This document shows positions 3,297-5,172 of a stretch of DNA of 64,000 nt, in pieces. A program made the translations under genes and the position numbers. Every line of letters starts with the position of its first letter. Position 1 is the stretch's first letter. The stretch comes from Agrobacterium vitis (GTDB lineage: Bacteria > Pseudomonadota > Alphaproteobacteria > Rhizobiales > Rhizobiaceae), in assembly GCF_037039395.1 (NCBI RefSeq), contig NZ_CP146242.1, positions 1,787,001-1,851,000 on the forward strand, read 5' to 3'. The notes below the pieces were generated by a model. The model was not told where the DNA came from. It searched no databases and saw only the letters and a program-made list of their open reading frames with translations.

Positions 3297-5172
3297 ATGA
3301 AAATGATGCCGCGGCGATATGATGTGATTGTGATTGGCGGCGGGCATGCCGGCAGCGAAGCGGCCTATGCGAGTGCGCGGCTTGGTGCGAAAACCTGCCT
3401 TGTGACGCATCGACGCGATACGATCGGTGTGATGTCTTGTAATCCGGCTATTGGTGGTCTGGGCAAAGGGCATCTTGTCCGGGAGATTGATGCCCTGGGC
3501 GGGCTCATGGGCAGGTGCGCCGATGCCGCAGGTATTCAGTTCCGGTTGCTTAACCGGAAAAAAGGCCCGGCTGTGCGAGGGCCGAGAACTCAGGCTGATC
3601 GTAAGCTTTACCGACAAGCAGTACAGAATTTTCTTTTTAATCATCCACAGTCTCGAGATCATTGAAGGGGATGTGTTCGATCTTGATGTTGAAAATGACA
3701 CGGTTAAAGGGGTCATTTTGGCAGACGGGCAAAATCTGTCCAGCGCGTCGGTGATATTGACCTCCGGTACTTTTTTGCGAGGTCTGATCCATATTGGACA
3801 AACAAAAATTCCGGCTGGGCGCGTGGGGGAAGCCCCATCCCTTGGTTTGAGCGCGACATTAGGGCGATTGGGGTTGAAACTGGGTCGGTTGAAAACCGGA
3901 ACACCAGCCAGGTTGGATGGCCGAACCATCAATTGGTCCCAGCTCGAAATGCAGGCGGCTGATGAGCAACCTGTTCCATTTTCCTTCATGACCGACCGTA
4001 TTACCAATCCGCAGATCGAATGTGGAATCACCCGCACCACCGCCGCAACCCATAAAATCATTCGAGATAACATTCATCTCTCCGCCATGTATTCTGGGCA
4101 GATCGAAGGGGTCGGTCCACGCTACTGTCCTTCAATTGAGGATAAGATCAGTCGGTTTGGAGACCGCGATGGCCATCAGGTTTTCCTGGAACCGGAGGGC
4201 CTGGATGACCATACGGTCTATCCAAATGGAATATCGACTTCTTTGCCGGAGTCCGTGCAGAGAGAGTTCATGCGAACCCTACCCGGCTTGGAAGATGTGA
4301 CGATTCTCCAGAGCGCTTATGCAATCGAATATGACCACATAGATCCGCGTGAATTGTCGGCAAGCCTCGAGTTGAAAAGGCTGAATGGTCTTTATCTCGC
4401 TGGGCAAATCAATGGAACCACTGGTTACGAAGAGGCCGCAGCACAAGGCATGGTGGCAGGATTGAATGCCGCTCGGGCGGCAGGTGGCCAGGATGCGGTT
4501 CATTTCAGCCGGGCTCAATCGTATATTGGGGTAATGATTGATGATTTGATCAGCCATGGCGTGACTGAGCCCTACAGGATGTTTACCTCCCGTGCCGAGT
4601 TTCGCTTGTCGCTTCGGGCAGATAATGCCGATATGCGTTTGACGCCTGTTGGTATCTCGCTTGGATGTATCGCGTCAGATCAAGAGACACGGTTTAATCA
4701 CTACAAGCATCAGATTGATGACACGATCGATATGCTTGAGATGAGAAAACTAACACCCAATGAGGCCGTTGCCGTTGGCATTCCTGTTAATCAGGATGGG
4801 CGGCGACGCACTGCCCTAGAGCTATTGGCTTATCCCGATATTTCGATTGCTGATCTCTCCAGGCTGTGGCCTGAACTTTCTGCTCTGGATAGTAAGGTCG
4901 CTGAGGCTGTTGAAATTCATGCGACCTATGCTGTTTATATGGATCGCCAAAATGCCGATATCGCCGCAACCAAACGAGATGAAGATAGGTTGATTCCAAA
5001 GGATTTCGATTATGCTTCTCTATCGGGCCTATCCAACGAGCTGAAACAGAAACTGGAAAAGACCCGCCCTGAAAATCTCTCTCAGGCTGCCAAGGTTGAG
5101 GGCATGACCCCTGCGGCTATTTCTTTGCTTATTGCTCTCTTGAACAAAGGTGTGTTGCGACATGTCGGTTGA
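3297..5172 (+). pseudogene. mnmG: mnmG (gidA), tRNA U34 modification flavoprotein, frameshifted
   Basis: The FAD/NADH partner of MnmE in tRNA wobble-uridine modification. The N-terminal ~118 residues (from MKMMPRRYDVIVIGGG, with dinucleotide motif GGGHAGSEAA and VMSCNPAIGG) are read in one frame, which hits TGA at 3663-3665. Everything from LEIIEGDVFD (3652 onward) to the normal C-terminus, including SGTFLRG, GTPARLDGR and NGTTGYEEAAAQG, is in the +1 frame. The whole interval is 1876 nt. Removing one base gives 624 residues, the normal family length, so one extra base near 3651 explains everything. Both halves are otherwise well conserved, so the break is either recent or a sequencing error. 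As read, only a truncated protein would be made. Confidence 0.85.

What the first reader, a model, noticed from the sequence alone, without database searches (positions are those of the whole stretch)
3630..3665. mnmG is broken by a single +1 frameshift
The sequence shows normal MnmG N-terminal residues (to NHPQ) in one frame and normal MnmG residues from LEIIEGD in the +1 frame. The first frame ends at TGA 3663-3665. Removing one base near 3651 restores 624 residues, the family length, and both sides are otherwise intact. MnmE, the obligate partner, is whole. Either this strain has recently lost a widely conserved tRNA U34 modification enzyme, the break is suppressed (slippage), or the assembly has one extra base. 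A CTTTTT run lies 15 bases upstream. The exact alignment (PQLEII) points to the T at 3651.
Basis: partly seen in the sequence, partly recalled or inferred. Interest (0 to 1): 0.7.

Follow-up and report, generated by a model that had tools for sequence, protein, structure and literature searches.

The report
One-base frame break in mnmG
In this published genome of a grapevine bacterium a housekeeping tRNA-modification gene looks cut in two by one extra letter, but an intact copy of exactly the same protein is on record from another contig, so the break is most likely a slip of nanopore-only sequencing or a very recent one-off mutation rather than new biology.

Summary
The frame break is real in the deposited sequence. 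MnmG reads 3303-3650 in one frame (TGA at 3663-3665) and 3652-5172 in the +1 frame. It is confined to this record: 37 of 39 related genomes have an open mnmG frame; the other two show only partial matches. A database protein on a 50,201-bp contig, not this 3.89-Mb chromosome, equals the two pieces letter for letter, 622 of 622 residues; ten close relatives differ from it at 22 to 32. Contig sizes identify Allorhizobium vitis CG957=AA25, a nanopore-only R10.4.1 Flye assembly with no polishing described. Over 1.22 Mb I accept seven internal gene breaks here against none to two in one relative, a weak excess. In two of the seven, mnmG among them, the extra base falls inside a tetramer that reads AGCT in a relative; two more are compatible but ambiguous. 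Most likely an assembly error (0.66); a recent private mutation is the main rival (0.29); the public reads would decide. Programmed frameshifting and established loss are disfavoured: no relative examined shares the joint and both pieces show purifying selection.

The parts
3303..3650 (+). mnmG N-terminal piece (116 codons; a start at 3297 is also possible)
   Evidence: Pfam GIDA positions 1-109, 171.5 bits; identical to residues 1-116 of P0001
3648..3654 (+). stretch in which the window is one base longer than the two nearest relatives
   Evidence: blastn alignments to G015 and G012
3663..3665 (+). TGA that ends the first frame
   Evidence: ORF list
3652..5172 (+). mnmG C-terminal piece in the +1 frame (506 codons and stop)
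   Evidence: window 3685-5169 scores 617.1 bits with TIGR00136, cut-off 524.85; GIDA 111-390 and both C-terminal GIDA domains; identical to the rest of P0001
1961..3271 (+). mnmE, intact partner gene
   Evidence: NF003661 563.7 bits, cut-off 380
3633..3638 (+).
   Evidence: no gap there against G015 and G012

Best explanation
The extra base is most likely an error in the consensus of the nanopore-only assembly of Allorhizobium vitis CG957=AA25, and the bacterium has an ordinary full-length MnmG. Shown: the break is private to this record and an intact identical protein is on record from another contig. Inferred: that the wrong base arose in basecalling or consensus, perhaps favoured by a short palindromic context (AGCT).
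For: Database protein P0001, on a contig of 50,201 bases, equals the two pieces 622 of 622, while ten of the 49 next listed proteins, compared with it, differ at 22 to 32 residues. 37 of 39 relatives are open. The assembly used R10.4.1 reads alone, Flye, no polishing described. Both pieces show purifying selection. Seven internal gene breaks in 1.22 Mb against none to two in G015. A recurring context: mnmG, a flippase gene and one site outside ORFs carry an extra base inside AGCT; three or more of 150 by chance p 0.0014, for a motif chosen after the fact. Precedent for rare residual nanopore errors at one palindromic tetramer, GGCC, in PMC12345217 (passages).
Against: R10.4.1 with the v4.3 basecaller gave the fewest indels among long-read-only assemblies in PMC11170131 (passages; there with Medaka). 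Depth is about 65x and the site is no homopolymer. Private clean indels are not raised overall: 37 here, 33 in G015, 24 in G012. The excess of gene breaks is weak (p 0.18 for 7 against 2, 0.016 for 7 against 0). The GGCC errors in PMC12345217 were mostly substitutions, not insertions. No m5C methylase was found that could mark AGCT (PF00145: 0 matches). The origin of P0001 is withheld ('-'), so it may come from a sister strain.
Confidence: 0.66

Rival explanations
1. A real, very recent one-base insertion, private to this isolate or to the revived 1984 culture, has inactivated mnmG. tRNAs would lack the (c)mnm5 group at U34 and the cell would rely on 2-thiolation by MnmA.
For: The sequenced DNA came from a stock of an old isolate. 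Loss is survivable elsewhere: Salmonella lacking either the s2 or the (c)mnm5 group grows poorly but lives, lacking both does not (PMC5400242, abstract); MnmA is present here (PF03054, 453-aa frame). Private indels overall are no more frequent than in relatives.
Against: It is one of several breaks, two or more in the same short context, and an identical intact protein is on record.
Confidence: 0.29
2. The break is bypassed by programmed or tolerated +1 slippage, so full-length MnmG is still made.
For: Both pieces are conserved and under purifying selection.
Against: The joint is in none of the 59 other genus genomes searched; 37 of 39 relatives are open without it; there is no stop at the joint and no evident slippery codon (sequence).
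Confidence: 0.02
3. Established loss of mnmG in the lineage of this strain.
For: The strain is a lineage of its own, 93.08% ANI to the type strain.
Against: P0001 shows a whole gene with the same private residues; no second lesion and no relaxed selection; mnmE and MnmA are kept.
Confidence: 0.02

Closest known systems
MnmG/GidA (TIGR00136, Pfam GIDA), tRNA U34 modification enzyme
   Same: Sequence, domain order and gene neighbourhood beside mnmE are those of the family.
   Different: The record splits the frame after 116 codons.
Residual context-dependent errors of R10.4.1 nanopore-only assemblies (PMC12345217, passages)
   Same: Rare errors at a palindromic tetramer without a matching methylase; most sites of the tetramer are unaffected.
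   Different: There GGCC and mostly substitutions, shown against short reads; here AGCT and insertions, shown only against relatives.
Programmed +1 frameshift genes such as prfB (recalled)
   Same: Two conserved frames joined by +1.
   Different: No stop or slippery codon at the joint; joint not conserved.

Membership tests
MnmG (TIGR00136) | score above the curated cut-off | tested here: met
   617.1 bits for the C piece alone, cut-off 524.85
MnmG (TIGR00136) | one uninterrupted reading frame of about 620 codons | tested here: not met
   116 and 506 codons in two frames
Nanopore consensus error | independent sequence of the same strain lacks the extra base | not testable with these tools
   no reads at hand; P0001 is from another contig but of withheld origin
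Nanopore consensus error | private to one record while near-identical sequence is intact | tested here: met
Nanopore consensus error | same context recurs among private indels of the assembly | tested here: inconclusive
   three clear AGCT cases and two ambiguous in 1.22 Mb, none of that kind in G015; motif chosen after the fact; planned independent test not run
Programmed +1 frameshifting | joint conserved among relatives | tested here: not met
   1 of 60 genus genomes, the own one
Pseudogene by established loss | relaxed selection or further lesions | tested here: not met
   synonymous/non-synonymous changed codons 39/4 and 124/28 against G015, 94/35 for mnmE

The most novel reading that the evidence does not exclude
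The extra bases are real, and this strain carries a mutagenic process that adds one base in the middle of AGCT, for example blunt cutting of AGCT followed by end joining that adds a nucleotide; mnmG was one casualty and the strain now lives without the U34 modification.
Probability: 0.03. Interest if true: 0.6.

Novelty: not a real feature. Interest (0 to 1): 0.1.

Why it matters
If the break were real, a plant-associated bacterium would live without a widely conserved wobble-uridine modification and would be a natural mutant for translation studies. More likely it matters as a caution: frame breaks in nanopore-only records should not be read as gene loss before the reads are checked, and insertions inside AGCT may be worth a look in other records made with the same basecaller.

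Tried and rejected
Upstream T run as origin: no length difference there. A generally error-rich assembly: private clean indels are not raised. Systematic substitution at some 5-mer: I saw none that stood out (which printed the ten most divergent and four chosen 5-mers per genome). A seeming lack of GAGTC in 424 kb vanished over 1.2 Mb. A seeming excess of insertions at GGCC (38 against 8) came down to 26 unique sites, 4 of them clean, none with the extra base in the middle as A or T in clean flanks. Methylase for AGCT: PF00145 0 matches, PF01555 one match, taken to be CcrM by recall; other methylase families were not searched.

How the seven gene breaks were chosen, and rows dropped. One search listed 30 two-frame rows for this genome and 26 for G015. 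I kept five of the 30 by eye: mnmG, a formate dehydrogenase beta subunit, a flippase, a 641-aa chemotaxis receptor, a 413-aa polysaccharide export protein. A codon-usage screen accepted 4 of 83 rows here and 0 of 81 in G015: the flippase, the export protein, a 673-aa chemotaxis receptor, and a LysR-type regulator (named by recall) whose orthology I doubt because the DNA around it did not align. That screen rejected mnmG and the 641-aa receptor and did not list the dehydrogenase, so it misses true genes. The union is seven. For G015 I count none (screen) to two (280- and 448-aa rows, both near the gene start). Unfiltered rows in the earlier three-way comparison point the same way only weakly: 'break' rows 4 and 5 in this genome, 2 and 3 in G015, 3 and 3 in G012. 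Breaks I judge to lie outside genes: 12291, 20381 and one upstream of a capsule gene.

AGCT count. One search reported four clean AG[A/T]CT-centred insertions here and one in G015; in the latter the extra base is, by my reading, a neighbouring G, so not of this kind. Of the four, mnmG, the flippase and the site outside ORFs read AGCT in G015; in the dehydrogenase, and in the 641-aa receptor (not in the clean list), relatives also differ by substitutions and the place of the extra base is ambiguous. One search has one more clean AGCT insertion here, with G, beside a G. The 150 rows hold repeats.

Whether the assembly behind P0001 also has the flippase and the dehydrogenase whole could not be told: the nearest listed entries are 98% alike clusters.

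Papers: PMC11321006 whole text; PMC9219206, PMC11170131, PMC12345217, PMC11649196 passages; PMC5400242 abstract and section list; all others only as search listings.

Full report
What is there. The window has rho, mnmE, mnmG, rsmG, parA and parB in a row (ORFs; mnmE and mnmG by NCBIfam; the other names are recalled). mnmG is in two frames: 3303-3650, running to TGA 3663-3665, and 3652-5172. Pfam GIDA positions 1-109 lie on the first piece and 111-390 on the second.

Which genome. The window lies in contig C2 of a 6,042,149-base assembly of five contigs. The contig lengths 3,889,016 and 1,229,846 are those of the two chromosomes of Allorhizobium vitis CG957=AA25, sequenced with R10.4.1 nanopore reads only (395.4 Mb, about 65x), assembled with Flye, no polishing described, 163 pseudogenes annotated, 93.08% ANI to the type strain (PMC11321006, whole text). 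It is a crown-gall strain of grapevine, so I describe its genes and mend none.

Is the break shared? Of 39 related genomes, 37 have an MnmG match in an open frame of 622 to 718 residues; in the other two (G016 and G039, 84% and 88% complete) only part of the gene was found. The two nearest, G012 and G015, are one base shorter inside 3648-3654. The 18-mer across the joint is in 1 of 60 genomes of the genus, the own one. Database protein P0001, on a contig of 50,201 bases, equals the two pieces letter for letter over 622 residues; ten of the 49 next listed proteins (P0002-P0050, 94-96% identical to the query) were compared with it and differ at 22 to 32 residues. The contig length shows that it is not this chromosome; that it comes from another assembly of the same or a sister strain is inferred, since the tool withholds its source.

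Is the gene decaying? Against G015 the N piece has 39 synonymous and 4 non-synonymous changed codons, the C piece 124 and 28; intact mnmE has 94 and 35. mnmE is whole and an MnmA-family gene is present. So the break is recent or not real. The next best GIDA match in the genome I take to be TrmFO, which by recall does another reaction and would not replace MnmG.

Error or mutation? I compared 1.22 Mb of this chromosome with G015, and 424 kb of it also with G012 (about 339 kb covered by both). Private clean indels are not raised: 37 here, 33 in G015, 24 in G012. Internal breaks of genes look more frequent, seven against none to two, but the excess is weak (p 0.18 or 0.016) and rests partly on my judgement; the choice is told under Tried and rejected. 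There is a hint of a shared context. In mnmG, in a flippase gene near C2:2,149,700 and at a site near C2:2,262,900 outside any ORF of 110 residues or more, this record has one extra A or T inside a tetramer that is AGCT in G015. A formate dehydrogenase beta subunit near C2:2,056,600 and a chemotaxis receptor near C2:2,188,200 are compatible but ambiguous. I found no insertion of that kind among 118 clean ones of G015 against this genome. By chance, three or more among 150 has p 0.0014 and two or more of seven gene breaks 4e-5, both for a motif chosen after seeing the data. Rare residual errors at one palindromic tetramer (GGCC, mostly substitutions), not explained by methylation, have been reported for two isolates sequenced with R10.4.1 (PMC12345217, passages). 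Against error stand the good record of this chemistry and basecaller (PMC11170131, passages), the depth, and the lack of a homopolymer at the site.

Verdict. The break is real in the record. The best explanation is an error of a nanopore-only consensus (0.66), next a very recent private mutation (0.29). Slippage and established loss are disfavoured (0.02 each). The finding is ordinary; the recurring AGCT context is the one thing worth a further look, and the public reads would settle both.

Noticed in passing
own genome C2 near 2,056,600 (L137), 2,149,700 (L141), 2,188,200 (L143), 1,882,300 (L128), 2,216,400 (L180): Five further genes read in one frame in G015 but in two frames here: formate dehydrogenase beta subunit, flippase-like protein, two chemotaxis receptors, polysaccharide export protein.
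   Followed up: partly
own genome C2 near 2,262,900 (L182): An extra base inside AGCT outside any ORF of 110 residues or more, with the same surroundings (CAG/CTGGCGA) as the flippase case.
   Followed up: partly
window 12291 and 20381: One-base length differences to both nearest relatives in stretches that I judge intergenic.
   Followed up: partly
own genome contig C4 (1,229,846 bases): The announcement calls this chromid linear, while an earlier paper says A. [quoted passage not shown] A search for a telomere-resolvase family (PF16684) found no match in the genome (no Agrobacterium among its controls), so it may simply not have been circularised.
   Followed up: partly
P0060 (407 aa) and P0008 (621 aa), both listed with a 3,717,176-base contig: A. 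vitis VAT03-9 seems to have both a truncated 'hypothetical protein' call and a full-length MnmG on record, probably two annotations of one gene.
   Followed up: no
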